Below are positions 4,799 through 56,658 of a stretch of 64,000 nucleotides of DNA, one piece after another (within the stretch, counting starts at the first letter, position 1; every line of letters begins with the position of its first letter). The position numbers and the translations under genes are program-made. The DNA is from Pseudomonadota bacterium (GTDB taxonomy: Bacteria; Pseudomonadota; Alphaproteobacteria; Acetobacterales; Acetobacteraceae): positions 86,375 through 150,374 of the forward strand of contig JAJZBV010000003.1 in the NCBI GenBank assembly GCA_021851785.1, given 5' to 3'. Below the pieces are notes generated by a model. It did no database searches. It was not told the DNA's origin and worked only from the letters and a program-made list of their open reading frames with translations.

Positions 4799-5390
4799 CG
4801 GCGCGCGCCGGCGCGCCACGGTTTTTCGCGATGGCGAGGAAATTGCCGAGGATCTCGTGGCCGCCTTCGCTGGCGATGCTCTCGGGATGGAATTGCACCC
4901 CGAAAATCGGCCGCTCGCGGTGGCGGAGGCCCATGAGCACCCCGTCCTCGCCATGGGCGGTCGCGATCAGGGCCGGCGGCAGGGTATCCTCGGCCACCGT
5001 CAGGCTGTGATAGCGGGTCGCGGCGAAGGGGTTGGGGAGGCCGGCGAAAACAGCGCGCCCGTCATGGGAAATCCGGCTGGTCTTGCCATGCATCGGCACC
5101 GGCGCGCGGGTGACCGTCGCGCCAAACGCCTGCCCGATCGCCTGATGGCCGAGGCAGACGCCGAGAATGGGCAGATCCGGCGGCGCGGCGCGGATCAGAT
5201 CGACGCAGATCCCGGCCTCGTTCGGGGTGCAGGGCCCGGGCGAGATCACCACCGCCTCCGGCGCCAGCGCCAGCGCCGCAGCGACGCTGAGCGTGTCGTT
5301 GCGGCGGACGTCGCACACGGCCCCGAGATCGCCGAGGAAATGGACGAGGTTGAAGGTGAAGCTGTCGTAATTGTCGATGAGCAGGATCAT
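4794..5390 (-). CDS. trpG: Anthranilate synthase glutamine amidotransferase subunit TrpG
   Basis: 198 residues, the usual size of a class I glutamine amidotransferase subunit that supplies ammonia to TrpE. It shows MILLIDNYDSFTFNL at the N-terminus, VISPGPCTPNEAG, the nucleophile elbow LGVCLGHQAIGQ and the FGVQFHPESIASEGG His-Glu pair. It may also serve aminodeoxychorismate synthase. trpE is not in the window; trpG instead follows an orphan DNA methyltransferase gene. The start codon is the last of five ATGs in a 14-base tandem repeat (5379-5446). No Shine-Dalgarno sequence is seen, so translation probably depends on coupling from upstream. Confidence 0.95.
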   Translation of the reverse strand: MILLIDNYDSFTFNLVHFLGDLGAVCDVRRNDTLSVAAALALAPEAVVISPGPCTPNEAGICVDLIRAAPPDLPILGVCLGHQAIGQAFGATVTRAPVPMHGKTSRISHDGRAVFAGLPNPFAATRYHSLTVAEDTLPPALIATAHGEDGVLMGLRHRERPIFGVQFHPESIASEGGHEILGNFLAIAKNRGAPARAA

Positions 5391-5446
5391 GGGAGCAGGA
5401 TCATGGGAGCAGGATCATGGGAGCAGGATCATGGGAGCAGGATCAT
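5379..5446 (-). repeat. 14-base tandem repeat forming four mini-ORFs in front of trpG
   Basis: Four full copies plus a 12-base fifth copy of the minus-strand unit ATGATCCTGCTCCC. Because 14 is not a multiple of three, each ATG opens a five-codon ORF (Met-Ile-Leu-Leu-Pro) read as ATGATCCTGCTCCCATGA, and its TGA overlaps the next ATG. Starts are at 5446, 5432, 5418 and 5404, then trpG at 5390. The methyltransferase gene upstream also ends in an ATGA overlap with the first mini-ORF. The unit is a copy of the first codons of trpG. Whether the mini-ORFs are translated is unknown. Confidence 0.9.
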
Positions 5447-6102
5447 GGCATGCCTCTTTCCGCCTCCATACTCCCGAATGCCGGCGCTGTCGAAGCCTGT
5501 TTCCGCGAAACCTTGCCGTCGCCCGCCCGCGCCAGGCGCCGGAAGATCGTCATCACCCGGAAGCGATGGTTGGTGGATTTCACGATGCCGACCACCGCCT
5601 CGATCACCCATTCGTCGCGGCGATACATCGGCAGCACCTGATCGAGCCAGACCACCCGCGCGCCCGCGGCGATGCCGGCCGCCAAGGAGCGCATCACGAC
5701 GTTGCGCTTGACCATGGTGGTCCGATAGCGCTCGGCGTCCTCGACGCTGTACGGCGGATCGGCGAGGATCAGGTCGTACTCCGCGAGCGGCACCGGCGAG
5801 AGATCATGGGCGTCCGCGACCCAGGTCGGGGCGACGGCGGGGTTGCAGTCCACCGTGTCGCCCGGCATCGCGCCGAGATCGACCCGGCCGGAAAACACGT
5901 GCAAAACCTTGCGGCGATCCGGAAACAATGCCGCGACGCGCCGCAGATAGCCGGCCGGATAACCGCCATAATAGCCGGATTTGACGCGATAATCGTTGCC
6001 CATGATCCAGGTGCCGACGACGCGCCCGTCCTCGGCGATGAAAAGACTGCGTGGAAACTTGGTCAGACGCACGTAGCTCTCGATGCGAGCCGGCCAGTCC
6101 AT
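5443..6102 (-). CDS. Orphan DPPY-type (N6-adenine-like) DNA methyltransferase-like protein
   Basis: 219 residues with the two core motifs of amino-methyltransferases. VLHVFSGRV resembles motif I (FxG, AdoMet binding), and ILADPPYS near residue 135 is the catalytic DPPY motif IV. The order, motif I before motif IV, and the lack of a separate long target-recognition domain suggest a small gamma-like or phage-type enzyme. No restriction endonuclease lies beside it. It sits between an SDR gene and trpG on the same strand, which is not a usual place for it, and its stop overlaps the first mini-ORF of the trpG leader as ATGA. The biological target is unknown; a role on nucleic acid is inferred from DPPY only. 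Confidence 0.7.
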   Translation of the reverse strand: MDWPARIESYVRLTKFPRSLFIAEDGRVVGTWIMGNDYRVKSGYYGGYPAGYLRRVAALFPDRRKVLHVFSGRVDLGAMPGDTVDCNPAVAPTWVADAHDLSPVPLAEYDLILADPPYSVEDAERYRTTMVKRNVVMRSLAAGIAAGARVVWLDQVLPMYRRDEWVIEAVVGIVKSTNHRFRVMTIFRRLARAGDGKVSRKQASTAPAFGSMEAERGMP

Positions 6103-6117
6103 GCGGTTCAGCGTCCG

Positions 6118-6900
6118 TCAGCCGAGCGTCGCATTGAAAGCGCCGCCATCGATGAGAAGATTCTGCCCGACGATGAAACCCGCTTGCACGCCGCACAGAA
6201 ACGCGCAAGCGGCGCCGAATTCCGCCGGATCGCCGACCCGCCCGGTGGGATTGGCCTTGGCGCGGAGGGCGATTTCCTCATCGACGCTGCGTTTGGCGCT
6301 GGCGGCGGCGGCGCGCATGTTGTCGCGCAGCCGGTCGGTGAGGAACGGGCCGGGGAGAAGATTGTTGATGGTGACATTGTCGCGCGCGACCTCGCGGGCG
6401 ACGCCGGCGACGAAGCCGGTGAGGCCGGCGCGGGCGCCGTTGCTGAGGCCGAGCGTCGGGATCGGCGATTTCACCGAAGCCGAGGTGATGTTGACGATGC
6501 GCCCGAAGCGCCGCGCGCGCATGCCCGCGATCACCGCCTGGATCAGCGCGATCGGCGTCAGCATGTTGGCTTCCAGCGCCGCGTGCCATTGTTCTGGCGT
6601 CAGCGTCGCGAAATTTCCCGCCGGCGGGCCGCCGGCGTTGTTGATCAGGATATCGGGCGCGGGCGCGGCCTCGAGCACGGCGGCGCGGCCGGAAGCGGTC
6701 GTGATGTCGGCGGCGATCGCCTGCACATCGACGCCGGTCGCGGCGCGGATGTCATCGGCGGTAGCGGCGAGGGCGTCTTTCCCGCGCGCGTTGATGACCA
6801 GCGCCACACCTTCGCGCGCCAGCGCCATGGCGGAGGCGCGCCCCAGCCCCTTGCTCGCCGCGCACACGATGGCGGTCTTGCCGCGCAATCCGAGATCCAT
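6118..6900 (-). CDS. Short-chain dehydrogenase/reductase family protein with SxxxR in place of YxxxK
   Basis: 260 residues with a Rossmann fold of the classical SDR type: TAIVCAASKGLGRASA (glycine-rich loop), ILINNAGGP (NNAG), IVNITSASV (catalytic Ser region). At the expected distance (13 and 17 residues after that Ser) the usual Tyr and Lys are Ser and Arg in LGLSNGARAGL. The usual proton-relay pair is therefore absent, and reductase activity is doubtful or works differently. The ATG at 6900 was chosen because GGAGGA stands 6 bases upstream; a TTG two codons earlier is less likely. It lies in the minus-strand block between a thioesterase and the methyltransferase. Confidence 0.85.
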   Translation of the reverse strand: MDLGLRGKTAIVCAASKGLGRASAMALAREGVALVINARGKDALAATADDIRAATGVDVQAIAADITTASGRAAVLEAAPAPDILINNAGGPPAGNFATLTPEQWHAALEANMLTPIALIQAVIAGMRARRFGRIVNITSASVKSPIPTLGLSNGARAGLTGFVAGVAREVARDNVTINNLLPGPFLTDRLRDNMRAAAASAKRSVDEEIALRAKANPTGRVGDPAEFGAACAFLCGVQAGFIVGQNLLIDGGAFNATLG

Positions 6901-6917
6901 GGACAATCCTCCGCTTT

Positions 6918-7358
6918 TCAGGTTTTTACGATGAGATCGGCGAGTGCCGCGCGCACCCCCGCCGGCATCGCGACCGGCCGCATGGTCGCGCGATCGACAT
7001 AGACATGCACGAAATGCCCCTCCGCCGCGGCGCCTTCACCGCCGGCGCGGAAAACGCCGAGTTCGTAACGAACCGCGCTGGTGCCGAGATGGGCGACGCG
7101 GAGGCCGACCGCAACCCGCTCGGGAAAACTGATCGACGCATGATAGCGGCAGGCATTTTCCGCGACGATGCCGATGATCGGACTCTCCGCGAGCGAGAGC
7201 AGGCCGCGCCGGACGAGAAACGCATTCACCGCGGTATCGAACCACGCATGATAGACCACGTTGTTGACATGGCCGTAGATGTCGTTGTCGTGCCAGCGCG
7301 TGGTGATCTCGTCAAAGGCCCGATAATCGGCGCGGCGTCCGGGTGGTATGCGGCTCAT
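6918..7358 (-). CDS. Acyl-CoA thioesterase, hotdog fold (4-hydroxybenzoyl-CoA thioesterase/YbgC type)
   Basis: 146 residues, a usual size for single-domain hotdog thioesterases. WHDNDIYGHVNNVVYHAWFDTAV carries the family pattern around the active-site Asp (DxxxHVNN). The rest fits the beta sheet wrapped around one helix. It probably hydrolyses an acyl-CoA in the cytosol; the natural substrate cannot be read from the sequence. The start at 7358 overlaps the moaB stop as ATGA (7355-7358), so it is translationally coupled to moaB. A 21-codon longer frame lies inside moaB and was rejected. Confidence 0.88.
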   Translation of the reverse strand: MSRIPPGRRADYRAFDEITTRWHDNDIYGHVNNVVYHAWFDTAVNAFLVRRGLLSLAESPIIGIVAENACRYHASISFPERVAVGLRVAHLGTSAVRYELGVFRAGGEGAAAEGHFVHVYVDRATMRPVAMPAGVRAALADLIVKT

Positions 7359-7909
7359 GTCCGGGCCGCGGCACCGGCGACGTGTTCCATGAGACGCGGC
7401 ATCAGCTCGACGAGATTGCACGGCCGGTGCCGCGCATCGAGCTGCCAGCGCAGGATGTCGTCCCAGGCATCCTTGACCGCGCCGGGGCTGCCGGGCAAGG
7501 CAAAAAGATAGGTGCCATGGGCAACGCCGCCGATGGCGCGCGACTGCATCGTCGAGGTGCCGATCTTCTGATAGCTCAGCATGCGGAACAATTCGCCGAA
7601 GCCTTCGATGCGTTTTTCGAGCACGCGCTCGAACGCTTCCGGCGTCACGTCGCGCCCGGTCAGACCCGTGCCGCCAGTGGTGATGACGACATCGATTTCC
7701 GGCGCCGCGATCCAGGCGCTGAGCTTCGCCGCGATCAGTCCGGCATCATCGCGCACCAGGTCGCGCGCGACGAGCATATGCCCGGCCTCGATGATGCGCG
7801 CGGCCAGCGTGTCACCGGAGGTGTCGTCGGCCCGCGTGCGGCTGTCCGAGACGGTGAGGACGGCGATGTTGACGGCGAGAAAGGCTCGGGCTTCGTCGAT
7901 GCGCGCCAT
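7355..7909 (-). CDS. moaB: Molybdenum cofactor biosynthesis protein MoaB (molybdopterin adenylyltransferase type)
   Basis: 184 residues of the MoaB/Mog fold, which adenylates molybdopterin before MoeA inserts the metal. Visible motifs are AVLTVSDSRTRADDTSGD, VVITTGGTGLTGRDVTPEA and the C-terminal LFALPGSPGAVKDAWDDIL. The ATG at 7909 is preceded by GGAGAG, which fixes the start. moaC and moeA lie in the same transcriptional direction a few kilobases downstream, so three molybdenum cofactor genes share this block. It could function as MogA; no other adenylyltransferase is in view. Confidence 0.93.
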   Translation of the reverse strand: MARIDEARAFLAVNIAVLTVSDSRTRADDTSGDTLAARIIEAGHMLVARDLVRDDAGLIAAKLSAWIAAPEIDVVITTGGTGLTGRDVTPEAFERVLEKRIEGFGELFRMLSYQKIGTSTMQSRAIGGVAHGTYLFALPGSPGAVKDAWDDILRWQLDARHRPCNLVELMPRLMEHVAGAAART

Positions 7910-53120: not shown

Positions 53121-54524
53121 ATGACCGTTTTGGACGAACCAAACGCCTGCAAGCCGGCAACCGCGCCGACGCCGGCCGATGGTCTCGACGCGCTGTCGGA
53201 GGCGCCCTGGCGGCGGTTTCATACCATCGCTGTGCTGCTGTTCGGGGTCGGCTGGGCGATGGATGCGTTCGAGGTGACATTGGTCGGCAATGTCATGGGC
53301 GCGCTCGGGGCGCGGTTTCACCTCGGCGCGCAGGCGATGTCGGTGCTGCTCGCGGCGTGGTTTTTCGGGCTGATGCTGGGCGCCGCCTGGTTCGGCCGGC
53401 TTTCCGACCGCCATGGAAGGCGGCGGGTGTTTCTCGCCAGCCTCACGCTTTACGGCCTCGCGACCCTGGCCGCCGCGTTCGCGCCCAATCTCGCCGCCCT
53501 GCTTGTGCTCCGCGCTCTCGCCGGGGTCGGGGTCGGCGCCGAATACGCGGCGATCAACGCCGCGATCACCGAATTGGTGCCGCGCCGCGCGCGCGGGCGG
53601 GCGGCGGCGATCGTGCTCAATTTCTGGCCGCTCGGCAGCCTGCTCGCCGCCCTCCTCGCCTGGCCGCTGCTCGCCGCGCTCCCGCCCGATCTCGGCTGGC
53701 GGGTGGTGTTCGCGACGGGCGGGCTGATCGCGCTGTCCACCGCCTGGCTGCGGCGCTATCTGCCCGAGAGCCCGCGCTGGCTGCTGGCGCAGGGACGGGG
53801 CGCGGAAGCCGCCGCCATCCTCGCCCGGGTGACCGGCGGCGCGCCGGCGGCGCTGGCGCCGCTCGCCGCTCCGGCCGCGAAAGCCTCGCTGATCGCGCTG
53901 CTGCGCCACGCGCCGGGGCGGCTCGCGCTCGGCGCCGCGCTCGATTTCGCCGAGGCCGCCGGGTATTATGGCCTGTTCGCGTTCCTTCCCCTGGTGGTGC
54001 TGCCCGCTTTGCATCTCGCGCCCCATGCCCTGCCGCTCTTTTATCTCGCCGGCAGTCTCGGCGCGCTGATCGGCGGGCTTGCCGCGGCGCTGGCGCTCGA
54101 TCGGTTCGGCCGTTTCGCGAGCGTGAGTTTTTTCTATGGCGCGACGGCGCTCGCCACCATCGCGCTGGCTTTCGTGACCGGCTTTGGCGCCGGCGCCATC
54201 ATGGCGGGTTTCGCGCTGACCAATCTGCTCGCGACCGCAAGCTGGATCGCCGCCTATCCGACGTTTTCCGAACTTTTCCCGACCCATTTGCGCGCGACCG
54301 GCATCGGCGCCAGCGTCGCCGTCGGGCGTATCGGGGCGATGATCGCGCCGTTCCTGGTCGCCGCCCTCGGCGCGCGGAGCATGGCCGCGGCGCTGTTTCT
54401 GCTCGCCGGATTCTGGCTGCTCGGGGCGCTGGCGATGGTGGTCTGGCGGGTCGCCGGCGGGATCGAGGGAAGCGGGATGGCGCTCGAGCGGATCGCGCCG
54501 GTGGCGGCGGCTTCCGGTGCCTGA
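53121..54524 (+). CDS. MFS transporter (metabolite:H+ symporter/NiaP-like)
   Basis: 467 residues with 12 predicted membrane segments. FGVGWAMDAFEVTLVGNVMGAL opens the protein in the manner of sugar/aromatic-acid MFS families. Motif A-like GRLSDRHGRRRVFLAS lies between segments 2 and 3, [27 protein letters not shown] in segment 4, and RRYLPESPRWLLAQGR at the central loop. The substrate is unknown. The stop lies 8 bases inside the next gene, the phosphoesterase/radical-SAM fusion, so the transporter likely handles a substrate or product of that enzyme (inference). Confidence 0.88.
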   Translation: MTVLDEPNACKPATAPTPADGLDALSEAPWRRFHTIAVLLFGVGWAMDAFEVTLVGNVMGALGARFHLGAQAMSVLLAAWFFGLMLGAAWFGRLSDRHGRRRVFLASLTLYGLATLAAAFAPNLAALLVLRALAGVGVGAEYAAINAAITELVPRRARGRAAAIVLNFWPLGSLLAALLAWPLLAALPPDLGWRVVFATGGLIALSTAWLRRYLPESPRWLLAQGRGAEAAAILARVTGGAPAALAPLAAPAAKASLIALLRHAPGRLALGAALDFAEAAGYYGLFAFLPLVVLPALHLAPHALPLFYLAGSLGALIGGLAAALALDRFGRFASVSFFYGATALATIALAFVTGFGAGAIMAGFALTNLLATASWIAAYPTFSELFPTHLRATGIGASVAVGRIGAMIAPFLVAALGARSMAAALFLLAGFWLLGALAMVVWRVAGGIEGSGMALERIAPVAAASGA

Positions 54525-56358
54525 CGGCGGACAAAGAGACATTACCGCGCCGCCGACGGTGCCGCTGCTCGTCGCCGAGGGGCCGGTTCTGGTCTTCGGC
54601 GGCTGCTATAGTAATCTCCAGGCGACCGAGGCGCTGCTCGCCGAGGCGGCCCGGCTTGGCATTCCGCCTTCGCGCATGATCTGCACCGGCGATGTCGTCG
54701 CTTATGGCGCCGATCCGGCGCCGGTGATCGCTCTCATCCGCGCCGCCGGGATCAGGACGGTGATGGGCAATTGCGAGGAACAGCTCGCCGCCGGCGCCGA
54801 GGATTGCGGCTGCGGCTTCGCCCCGGGATCGAGCTGCGAGCGGCTTTCGGCGGCCTGGTTCACCTATGCCAGCGCCCGTGTCGATCACGCGGCGCGGCGC
54901 TGGATGGCGGAATTGCCGCGCCGGCTCGATCTCCTCATCGGCGGGCGGCGCCTCGCCGTCGTCCATGGCGCGCCGAGCCGGATCAACCGCTTCGTCTTCG
55001 CCTCCCACCCCGCGGCCGAGCTTGCCGGCGAAATTGCCGAAACCGGCACCGCGGGCGTGATCGGCGGCCATTGCGGCCTGCCCTTCACCCGCGTTCTCGG
55101 CGACCGGCTCTGGCACAATGCCGGGGTGATCGGCCTGCCCGCCAATGACGCAACACCGCGCGGCTGGTTCAGCCTGCTGATCCCCGCAAAAGACGGGCCA
55201 GGGGGCGGCGGACTCGACATCCGCCATCTGCCGCTCACCTATGATCACCGCGCGGCGGCGGCGGCGATGCGGCGCGCCGGGCTGCCCGAGGATTACGCCG
55301 AGACGCTGGAGAGCGGCATCTGGCCGAATTTCGACATCCTGCCCGCCGCCGAGCAGGCGATGAGTGGCACAAGTCTCGCGCCCCCCGTGACAAGGTGGCG
55401 AAAGAACGCAGCCCCCGCGCCCGCCGCCCGCCCGGCTTTCGCCGACCCGGCGCGGACCGCCAACGGCGAGCCCCACGCGACGGTTGCGCTCACCGGCCTC
55501 GAAGCCCTGTGGTTCAATACCGGGACGTTGTGCAACATCGCCTGCGCCGATTGCTATATCGAAAGCAGCCCGCGCAATGACCGGCTGCTTTATCTCGCCC
55601 GCGCCGATTTCGACCGGTTTCTCGACGAGGCGGCGACCCGCCACCCCGAACTCGTCGAGATCGGCTTCACCGGCGGTGAGCCGTTTTTGAACCCGGAGAC
55701 GCCGGCGATGATCGCGGAGGCGCTCGCGCGCGGCTATCGCGCGCTCGTGCTGACCAACGCCATGCGCCCGATGCAGCGTCATCTCGCGCGGCTCCGCCGG
55801 CTTGCCGCGGCGCATGGCGCGCGGCTCGCGATCCGGGTGTCGCTCGACCATTACACCCGGGAGGGGCATGAGCGCTTGCGTGGCGCCGGGAGTTTCGCGC
55901 CGAGCCTCGCCGGGCTCCGCGCGCTCGCCGGGAGTGGCGCCTCGCTCTCGATCGCGGCCAGGCGGCCGCCCGAGGTCGAGGAGGCGGGCCTGCGCGCCGG
56001 CTTCGCCGCTTTGTTCGCGGAACTCGGCTTGGCACTCGATGCCTTCGATCCCGCGCGGCTGGTGTTGTTTCCCGAACTCGCGAACCAGCCCGACCCGCCG
56101 GAGGTGAGCGCGACCTGCTGGCGGACGCTCGCCCGGCGCGGGCGGCGGGTGATGTGCGAGACCTCGCGGATGGTCATCCATCGCCGGGGTGAGGCGGCGC
56201 CGCGTGTCGTTGCCTGCACCTTGCAGCCCTATGCGCCGGGTTTCGATCTCGGCGCCGATCTCCTGGCCGCGGCACGGCCGGTGACCCTCGACCACCCCTA
56301 TTGCGCGCGGTTTTGCGTCTTCGGCGCCGCTTCCTGCACGGCAATGGCGGGCCGCTGA
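54517..56358 (+). CDS. Metallophosphoesterase-like/radical SAM fusion protein
   Basis: 613 residues, GTG start overlapping the MFS gene by 8 bases. Residues 1-250 follow the metallophosphoesterase layout (CTGDVVAYGADP, VVHGAPSRINRF, GHCGLPFTRVLG), but the usual DxH is GGCYSN and GNH is GNC; a Cys-rich loop DCGCGFAPGSSCER is added. Residues 330-613 form a radical SAM domain: LCNIACADCYIESSP holds the CxxxCxxC iron-sulfur site, GFTGGEPFLNP follows, and HPYCARFCVFGAASC gives a C-terminal cysteine cluster as in SPASM-like enzymes. The product is unknown. The TGA stop is the first triplet of the adjacent IS remnant, so the natural C-terminus may have been altered slightly. Confidence 0.85.
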   Translation: MPDGGQRDITAPPTVPLLVAEGPVLVFGGCYSNLQATEALLAEAARLGIPPSRMICTGDVVAYGADPAPVIALIRAAGIRTVMGNCEEQLAAGAEDCGCGFAPGSSCERLSAAWFTYASARVDHAARRWMAELPRRLDLLIGGRRLAVVHGAPSRINRFVFASHPAAELAGEIAETGTAGVIGGHCGLPFTRVLGDRLWHNAGVIGLPANDATPRGWFSLLIPAKDGPGGGGLDIRHLPLTYDHRAAAAAMRRAGLPEDYAETLESGIWPNFDILPAAEQAMSGTSLAPPVTRWRKNAAPAPAARPAFADPARTANGEPHATVALTGLEALWFNTGTLCNIACADCYIESSPRNDRLLYLARADFDRFLDEAATRHPELVEIGFTGGEPFLNPETPAMIAEALARGYRALVLTNAMRPMQRHLARLRRLAAAHGARLAIRVSLDHYTREGHERLRGAGSFAPSLAGLRALAGSGASLSIAARRPPEVEEAGLRAGFAALFAELGLALDAFDPARLVLFPELANQPDPPEVSATCWRTLARRGRRVMCETSRMVIHRRGEAAPRVVACTLQPYAPGFDLGADLLAAARPVTLDHPYCARFCVFGAASCTAMAGR

Positions 56359-56658
56359 CCTGCCCCTGGATTTTCGGCCCACCGCAAAGTTGAGAGACTG
56401 ACTCCCTGGAGGGAGGGAGCGATGCGGAAATCGAGGTTCACGGATGAGCGGGGGGTGGGGATCATCCGGGCGGCGGATCGGGAGCCGGTGGCGGAGGTGG
56501 CCCGGCTGAAGAAGCTGGTGGCGGAACGCGATCCGGAGATCGGGGTGATGCGTGAGGTAGCGGCAAAAAACTGGTGAGCGTGTCGCCCCACCTGGGGCAA
56601 CAGCAGCAAGGAGCCGGGCTCTCAAGTTAACCGTGGTCCGAAGAAACAGGGCAGGTCA
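56356..56658 (+). mobile_element. 303-bp non-autonomous IS3-family derivative
   Basis: Both ends are preserved: TGACCTGCCCCTGGATTTTC at the left and, on the other strand, TGACCTGCCCTGTTTCTTCG at the right, clearly related inverted repeats. Between them an orfA remnant (51 codons) and an orfB remnant of 18 codons overlap as GTGA, as in intact IS3 elements. Almost the whole transposase has been lost by internal deletion. No clear target duplication was found (left flank ends CCGC, right flank begins GGCG). Right beside it is a GGCGGG/CCCGCC hairpin at 56659-56674. Confidence 0.85.
56422..56577 (+). pseudogene. Internally deleted IS3-family transposase OrfA
   Basis: 51 codons. The first 28 residues (MRKSRFTDERGVGIIRAADR then EPVAEVAR) are the N-terminus of IS3-type OrfA. 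They run in frame into its C-terminus LKKLVAERDPEIGVMREVAA ending KNW. The middle, with the helix-turn-helix and leucine zipper, is missing. Its stop overlaps a GTG that opens an 18-codon orfB remnant (56574-56630). It cannot encode a working transposase. Confidence 0.88.

What the first reader, a model, noticed from the sequence alone, without database searches (positions are those of the whole stretch)
54517..56358. Phosphoesterase-like domain fused to a radical SAM enzyme, with changed metal ligands
The N-terminal half keeps the metallophosphoesterase fold motifs but replaces the first metal Asp-x-His by Gly/Cys/Tyr residues and GNH by GNC, and adds a Cys-rich loop. The C-terminal half is a radical SAM domain with CxxxCxxC and an extra C-terminal cysteine cluster. 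The two activities in one chain, coupled by overlap to an MFS transporter, suggest a small biosynthetic or modification unit whose product is unknown. The cysteines in the first domain could bind a different metal or an iron-sulfur cluster.
Basis: partly seen in the sequence, partly recalled or inferred. Interest (0 to 1): 0.6.

Follow-up and report, generated by a model that had tools for sequence, protein, structure and literature searches.

The report
Altered-phosphoesterase / radical SAM fusion protein
This gene makes one protein from two enzyme-like parts, a phosphoesterase whose metal-binding residues have been swapped for an invariant set that includes cysteines, and a radical enzyme; related bacteria carry the parts as separate genes, often near genes linked to organic arsenic compounds, so it is probably an uncharacterised step in such a pathway.

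Summary
ORF 54517-56358 (613 aa) joins a calcineurin-like phosphoesterase (MPE) domain to a radical SAM domain. It is no sequencing error: about 50 distinct fusions exist, the fused state needs 3-6 changes on the radical SAM tree, and elsewhere the halves are separate, sometimes adjacent genes. The altered ligands are a family trait: in 49 MPE sequences Gly29, Tyr31 and Gly187 always replace the three site-A-only ligands, the site-B set Asp59/Asn85/His150/His185 stays in at least 48, and Cys97/99/107 (mostly Cys86 and Cys56 too) are conserved. AlphaFold2 (pLDDT 92.5) matches SapH-type phosphoesterases (Z 26) and SPASM/twitch enzymes (Z 20).

The surroundings suggest arsenosugar-type metabolism: TIGR04282/TIGR04283 glycosyltransferases, MTA-type phosphorylase, MerA-like oxidoreductase, phosphonate-type or MFS transporter. 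One genome without the radical SAM half has the MPE gene in a cluster with a true ArsS. Against this, the protein is not ArsS (60 bits, cut-off 300) and most carriers lack ArsM. Best model: the radical SAM half adenosylates an arsenic-like substrate that the MPE half binds or presents. No literature on this family was found.

The parts
54517..56358 (+). Fusion gene: MPE-like domain + radical SAM/SPASM-like domain, 613 aa
54517..55416 (+). N-terminal MPE-like half (about residues 1-300; SapH-like fold over residues 21-275)
54598..54615 (+). Motif I, GGxYSN (residues 28-33) in place of S-D-x-H-G-N: G29 for Asp, Y31 for His
54682..54693 (+). C56-T-G-D59: bridging Asp kept; Cys56 conserved in most
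54769..54774 (+). N85-C86: GNH read as GNC
54805..54837 (+). Cys-rich loop C97-G-C99...C107
54964..54966 (+). H150, site-B ligand position kept
55066..55077 (+). G-H185-x-G187: first His of GHxH kept, second replaced by Gly
55450..56355 (+). C-terminal radical SAM half (about residues 312-613)
55531..55554 (+). Radical SAM CxxxCxxC (C339, C343, C346)
56155..56217 (+). C547 ... C567, start of a SPASM/twitch-like auxiliary cysteine set
56302..56337 (+). C596-x3-C600-x6-C607, C-terminal cysteines
53121..54524 (+). MFS transporter (2A0115-like, below its cut-off), stop overlaps the fusion's annotated start by 8 nt; next to the fusion in most Acetobacteraceae relatives

Best explanation
A two-domain enzyme of an alphaproteobacterial organoarsenical (arsenosugar-type) pathway. 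Shown: the fold of both halves (predicted), family-wide loss of the site-A-only MPE ligands with gain of a conserved Cys set, radical SAM and auxiliary cysteines, recurrent fusion, and linkage in several lineages to TIGR04282/TIGR04283 glycosyltransferases, an MTA-type phosphorylase, a MerA-like oxidoreductase and a PhnCDE-type or MFS transporter. Inferred: the transporter moves an oxyanion-like substrate (for example a methylated arsenical, a phosphonate look-alike); the oxidoreductase reduces it; the MPE half binds it with its one remaining metal site and/or its cysteines and presents it to the fused or partner radical SAM half; that half adds a 5'-deoxyadenosyl group as ArsS does; the phosphorylase then removes adenine and the glycosyltransferases finish the product. 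The MPE half is probably not an ordinary dinuclear phosphatase.
For: Three site-A-only ligands replaced in all of 49 MPE sequences, site B kept in 48 or more. The MPE half is as conserved as the radical SAM half and under purifying selection (dN/dS 0.24-0.37 against 0.18-0.30). One lineage (L073) lost C86, C97, C99 and C107 together, which suggests they work as a set. The halves co-occur (11 of 13 MPE genomes have the radical SAM half, p 2e-5), and 40 of 41 radical SAM genomes carry TIGR04283 (p 1e-20). Exception G049 has no such radical SAM gene, but its MPE gene lies in a cluster with a true ArsS (446 bits, cut-off 300), MTAP, both GTs and PhnD/PhnE. MTAP or an MTA-type phosphorylase is also next to the fusion region in L069 and L070. 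A divergent member in G179 sits with both GTs and an ArsM-like methyltransferase. 32 of 52 MPE-bearing loci have MFS or PhnD+PhnE within 4 kb, against 1 of 26 loci with the radical SAM gene alone. The window genome has ArsM above cut-off and a TIGR04282/TIGR04283 pair elsewhere. ArsS adenosylates arsenic (PMC12159101).
Against: The radical SAM half is far below the ArsS cut-off (60 against 300 bits) and aligns to ArsS only over the radical SAM core. Only 10 of 41 carriers have an ArsM hit, and G049, with a true ArsS, has none in either ArsM family searched. MPE presence is not associated with ArsM (2 of 13, p 0.34). The name 'arsenosugar' of TIGR04282/TIGR04283 is annotation, not tested function. 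The Fisher tests ignore phylogeny. In most rSAM-only loci and many fused loci the GTs are not close by.
Confidence: 0.4

Rival explanations
1. The protein belongs to a pathway with the same logic (adenosylation, phosphorolysis, glycosyl transfer) but another substrate, such as a phosphorus or selenium oxyanion or an organic acid; arsenic is a side issue of annotation.
For: PhnD/PhnE/PhnC-type transporter near the MPE (TIGR01098 above its cut-off); TIGR03169 'Nterm_to_SelD' oxidoreductase nearby; most carriers lack ArsM, and even the ArsS genome G049 lacks it.
Against: A true ArsS stands in the cluster in G049; an ArsM-like gene stands beside a divergent member in G179; ArsM is more frequent in carriers of the radical SAM half (10 of 13, p 2e-4). 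PhnD is below the PhnD and selenate-transporter cut-offs.
Confidence: 0.33
2. The MPE half is an active phosphodiesterase/phosphatase working with one metal (site B), hydrolysing a phospho-intermediate made by the partner enzymes. This concerns the first half only and is compatible with either pathway.
For: Site-B residues D59, N85, H150 and H185 are almost invariant; the nearest characterised fold relative, SapH, is an Ap4A hydrolase/phosphodiesterase and itself has GNW instead of GNH.
Against: All three site-A-only ligands are absent in every member; the fold class also holds proteins with degenerate ligand positions (PF1291/1nnw, PH1004/2gju).
Confidence: 0.3
3. The radical SAM half is a SPASM/twitch peptide maturase (RiPP enzyme) and the MPE half a recognition or regulatory domain.
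For: Structural neighbours include SkfB, SuiB and EpeE; sub-threshold NCBIfam hits to sactipeptide maturases.
Against: Best match is BlsE, a nucleoside-sugar enzyme. The linked genes are transporters, glycosyltransferases and phosphorylases. In the window the MFS and fusion genes overlap, leaving no room for a precursor gene between them.
Confidence: 0.1
4. A decaying, non-functional MPE remnant carried along with the radical SAM enzyme.
For: Loss of site A; a frameshifted or shortened MPE copy in one metagenome-assembled genome (L078).
Against: The MPE half evolves under purifying selection and is as conserved as its partner; new cysteines are fixed; it also persists as a separate gene.
Confidence: 0.03

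Closest known systems
SapH / Metallophos_2 (PF12850) phosphoesterases (PDB 3qfm, 3rqz)
   Same: Whole fold of the N-terminal half (Z 25-26, 2.8-2.9 A over 216-245 residues); bridging Asp, Asn and two His of site B
   Different: Site-A Asp, His and last His replaced by Gly, Tyr, Gly in every member; added C97/C99/C107 loop; fused or linked to a radical SAM enzyme
PF1291/PH1004 (PDB 1nnw, 2gju; structural-genomics MPE-fold proteins)
   Same: Same fold (Z 26); metal-ligand motifs also altered in the alignment
   Different: They lack the site-B set that this family keeps and have no Cys loop
ArsS, arsenosugar biosynthesis radical SAM enzyme (TIGR04167)
   Same: Radical SAM core homology (29% over 143 columns); similar gene company; stands in the cluster instead of the radical SAM half in G049
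   Different: 60 against cut-off 300 bits; alignment stops after the core; different C-terminal half
BlsE cytosylglucuronate decarboxylase (PDB 7vob)
   Same: Best solved match of the radical SAM half (Z 20.2, 3.3 A, 250 residues)
   Different: 20% identity; no sign of a blasticidin-type cluster here
Rv1681 family radical SAM protein (NF049973)
   Same: Best NCBIfam profile of the radical SAM half (E 1.1e-23)
   Different: 84 against cut-off 380 bits

Membership tests
Calcineurin-like metallophosphoesterase (PF12850) | MPE fold and profile match | tested here: met
   28.1 bits vs 27; Z about 26 to SapH-like structures
Calcineurin-like metallophosphoesterase (PF12850) | Dinuclear metal site: D-x-H, GD, GN(H), H, GHxH | tested here: not met
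   G29, Y31 and G187 replace the three site-A-only ligands; D59, N85, H150 and H185 kept
Radical SAM superfamily (PF04055) | CxxxCxxC and radical SAM fold | tested here: met
   C339/C343/C346 invariant; 49.2 bits vs 29.5; fold matches
SPASM/twitch radical SAM enzymes | Conserved C-terminal cysteines for an auxiliary Fe-S cluster | tested here: inconclusive
   Five near-invariant cysteines C547, C567, C596, C600, C607; structural neighbours are SPASM/twitch enzymes; cluster binding itself untested
ArsS (TIGR04167) | Score above the curated cut-off (300 bits) | tested here: not met
   60.4 bits; homology limited to the core
ArsS-type arsenosugar pathway (works like) | Company of MTAP, TIGR04282 and TIGR04283 genes | tested here: met
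   All three in L070 and, with ArsS instead of rSAM2, in L129; 40 of 41 rSAM2 genomes have TIGR04283. Not adjacent in the window: the GT pair is on another contig; MTAP was not searched in the window genome
ArsS-type arsenosugar pathway (works like) | ArsM methyltransferase in the genome | tested here: inconclusive
   Present in the window genome and 9 other rSAM2 genomes, absent in 31 of 41 and in the ArsS genome G049
Rv1681 family (NF049973) | Score above the curated cut-off (380 bits) | tested here: not met
   83.7 bits
RiPP maturase | Conserved precursor peptide gene next to the enzyme | not tested
   No systematic short-ORF search; in the window MFS and fusion overlap

The most novel reading that the evidence does not exclude
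A phosphoesterase fold converted into a metalloid-binding domain: site A removed, a conserved cysteine set gained, and the domain fused several times to a non-ArsS radical SAM enzyme that makes a carbon-arsenic bond on imported methylated arsenicals, giving bacteria without ArsM an organoarsenical pathway.
Probability: 0.17. Interest if true: 0.8.

Novelty: new variant of a known kind. Interest (0 to 1): 0.52.

Why it matters
An uncharacterised enzyme family of Alphaproteobacteria (present down to a 1.2 Mb genome) unites an altered phosphoesterase with a radical SAM enzyme. If the arsenic link holds, it adds a second, ArsS-independent route to carbon-arsenic bonds and a new way to bind the substrate, and it would help explain why 'arsenosugar' glycosyltransferases are common in bacteria that have neither ArsS nor ArsM. 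It also shows a metal site rebuilt inside a very common fold, which can be tested directly.

Tried and rejected
Sequencing-error fusion: rejected. Pseudo-domain drift: rejected on conservation and dN/dS. A PhnC-MPE fusion suspected in L017 (542-aa ORF): rejected, the N-terminal part matches no PhnC and looks like a shadow frame. Direct membership in ArsS or the Rv1681 family: rejected by cut-offs. Literature: no paper found in the held library describes an MPE-radical SAM fusion or this MPE family; the papers found concern ArsS, arsinothricin and algal arsenic genes. PhnD is not found in the window genome, compatible with the MFS doing that job, but an empty search proves little. Phage profiles give nothing specific. 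Relatives outside Alphaproteobacteria: none among 398 sampled genomes of the phylum, all hits being in the same class; single hits in 'Terriglobia' and 'Planctomycetota' MAGs (L040, L083) may be misbinned.
Full report
1. The gene. ORF 54517-56358 (+) encodes 613 aa starting at GTG; the upstream MFS gene (53121-54524) ends 8 nt inside it. An in-frame GTG at 54559 (residue 15) lies where homology begins, so the true start is uncertain. Pfam finds Metallophos_2 at 33-213 and Radical_SAM at 334-474. NCBIfam finds only sub-threshold radical SAM profiles, Rv1681 (83.7 of 380 bits) and ArsS (60.4 of 300) being best. PDB sequence search gives BlsE (cytosylglucuronate decarboxylase) for the C-terminal half and a Sphaerobacter MPE for the N-terminal half.

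2. Relatives. Full-length fusions occur in the window's genus, elsewhere in its family and in other Alphaproteobacteria (Acidiphilium, Acidocella, Reyranella, Bradyrhizobium, Methylopila, Afipia, Devosia and others). In other genomes the halves are separate genes (called MPE and rSAM2 here), adjacent as rSAM2 then MPE (L024, L106, L163, L164, L166), or further apart. In the fusion the order is MPE then radical SAM. On a tree of 102 radical SAM sequences (56 fused, a few of them duplicates) the fused state needs 6 changes, at least 3 forced by well-supported branches (quick tree, some branches weak). Recurrent joining of two proteins is the classical sign of shared function.

3. Altered metal site. 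Aligned to solved relatives: SapH SDIHGN corresponds to GG-x-Y-S-N, so Asp becomes G29 and His becomes Y31; GD is kept (D59); GNH/GNW becomes GNC (N85, C86); the next His is H150; GHxH becomes GHxG (H185 kept, G187). In 49 MPE sequences, the most distant 36% identical to the window's, G29, Y31 and G187 are invariant, as are D59, H150 and H185, and N85 is lost once. C97 is missing in two, C99 and C107 in one, C86 in three and C56 in three. Thus the ligands exclusive to site A are gone and site B is intact. One Devosia sequence (L073) has lost C86, C97, C99 and C107 together. Two sequences (L026, L165) have Val at 86 with C97, C99 and C107 kept.

4. Structure. AlphaFold2 with 69 family sequences: mean pLDDT 92.5, pTM 0.88. 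MPE half: PH1004 and PF1291 (Z 26, 2.3-2.7 A) and SapH (Z 25.6, 2.8 A). Radical SAM half: BlsE (Z 20.2), SkfB (19.0), SuiB (18.5) and other SPASM/twitch enzymes. C339/C343/C346 are the SAM-cluster ligands; C547, C567, C596, C600 and C607 are near-invariant and resemble a SPASM/twitch auxiliary set (cluster binding is inference).

5. Constraint. The MPE half is as conserved as the radical SAM half in the same proteins (identities to the window), and dN/dS against four relatives is 0.24-0.37 for MPE and 0.18-0.30 for radical SAM. It is not a dead domain.

6. Company. Roseomonas haemaphysalidis plasmid (L109, annotated record): TIGR04282 glycosyltransferase, DUF547, radical SAM, rSAM2, PhnD, PhnE, ATP-binding (PhnC-like) and MPE genes in one run; near by MerA-like and TIGR03169 FAD oxidoreductases, a VTT protein and a TIGR04283-like glycosyltransferase. 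Ancylobacter (L070): MTAP, a radical SAM gene, the fusion, both GTs, PhnD/E/C, VTT and FAD oxidoreductase. Afipia (L069): an MTA-type phosphorylase directly after the fusion. Acidiphilium and Acidocella: MFS, fusion, FAD oxidoreductase, both GTs. G049 (L129): TIGR04282, VTT/FAD oxidoreductase, a true ArsS (445.7 bits), MTAP, TIGR04283, the MPE gene and PhnD/PhnE, while the genome has no rSAM2 at the threshold used. G179 (L186): a divergent rSAM2, alignable over its full length, between both GTs and opposite an ArsM-like methyltransferase. A transporter (MFS, or PhnD+PhnE) lies within 4 kb in 32 of 52 MPE-bearing loci and 1 of 26 rSAM2-only loci (p 4e-7, not corrected for kinship).

7. Co-occurrence in 142 alphaproteobacterial genomes (tests): MPE 13, rSAM2 41, TIGR04283 57, ArsM 13, ArsS above cut-off 1. 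rSAM2 with TIGR04283 40 of 41; MPE with TIGR04283 13 of 13; MPE with rSAM2 11 of 13; ArsM with rSAM2 10 of 13; ArsM with MPE 2 of 13 (no association). The window genome carries ArsM (337 bits, cut-off 263) and a TIGR04282/TIGR04283 pair on other contigs. The second ArsM family adds no above-cut-off hit, and G049 has neither. ArsM occurs throughout the sampled members of the window's genus but in few other fusion carriers. The MPE family was found only in the window's class among 398 genomes of the phylum.

8. Mechanism. Established knowledge: ArsS adds an adenosyl group to arsenic (review PMC12159101, citing Cheng et al. 2021). That an MTA-type phosphorylase then removes adenine is inference from the gene set. 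Because ArsS itself stands in the cluster in a genome that has the MPE gene but no rSAM2, the simplest reading is that rSAM2 does an ArsS-like job. Because ArsM is often absent and MPE goes with a transporter, I infer that a ready-made oxyanion, possibly a methylated arsenical resembling a phosphonate, is imported. The MPE half, lacking site A but keeping site B and new cysteines, would bind the substrate or hydrolyse a phospho-intermediate with one metal. These last steps are inference; the arsenic part could be wrong, as 31 of 41 carriers lack ArsM.

9. Verdict. This is a new variant of known kinds (MPE fold, radical SAM/SPASM-like), not a new kind. Interest is moderate: a well-defined, uncharacterised, testable enzyme family.

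Noticed in passing
L072 / G003:C13 (close relative), UbiA 4896-5822 and fusion 6001-7779: In a relative 87-90% identical here, the fusion follows UbiA directly and the MFS gene, present between them in the window, is absent.
   Followed up: partly
window 56422-56577: Just downstream of the fusion a short ORF-like stretch (MRKSRFTDERGVGIIRAADREPVAEVARLKKLVAERD...) resembles the first ORF of an IS3-type transposase by eye, probably a remnant; only one copy in the window.
   Followed up: no
L073:1125-2000: A Devosia fusion in which GNCEE reads GDDDE and the CGCGF loop is deleted, so four of the conserved cysteines are gone at once while the rest of the site is kept.
   Followed up: partly
L186:1722-2911 and L197:8288-8761: Methionine sulfoxide reductase-like genes (MsrB, MsrA) near TIGR04283 genes in two distant genomes, judged by eye from the sequence.
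   Followed up: no
L031, L032, L033, L035, L049, L064, L077, L078: Upstream of MFS-fusion in many acidophile genomes lies a DUF692 / DUF2063 / DoxX cluster (names assigned by eye), reminiscent of metal-binding peptide (bufferin-type) operons.
   Followed up: no
L168 and L169 (G161, 1.2 Mb genome): A very small alphaproteobacterial genome keeps both MPE (36% identity) and rSAM2 as separate distant genes, rSAM2 next to a VTT protein; suggests a useful core function.
   Followed up: partly
L078:6252-7334: Metagenome copy with the MPE half frameshifted and shortened next to MFS; assembly error or decay.
   Followed up: no
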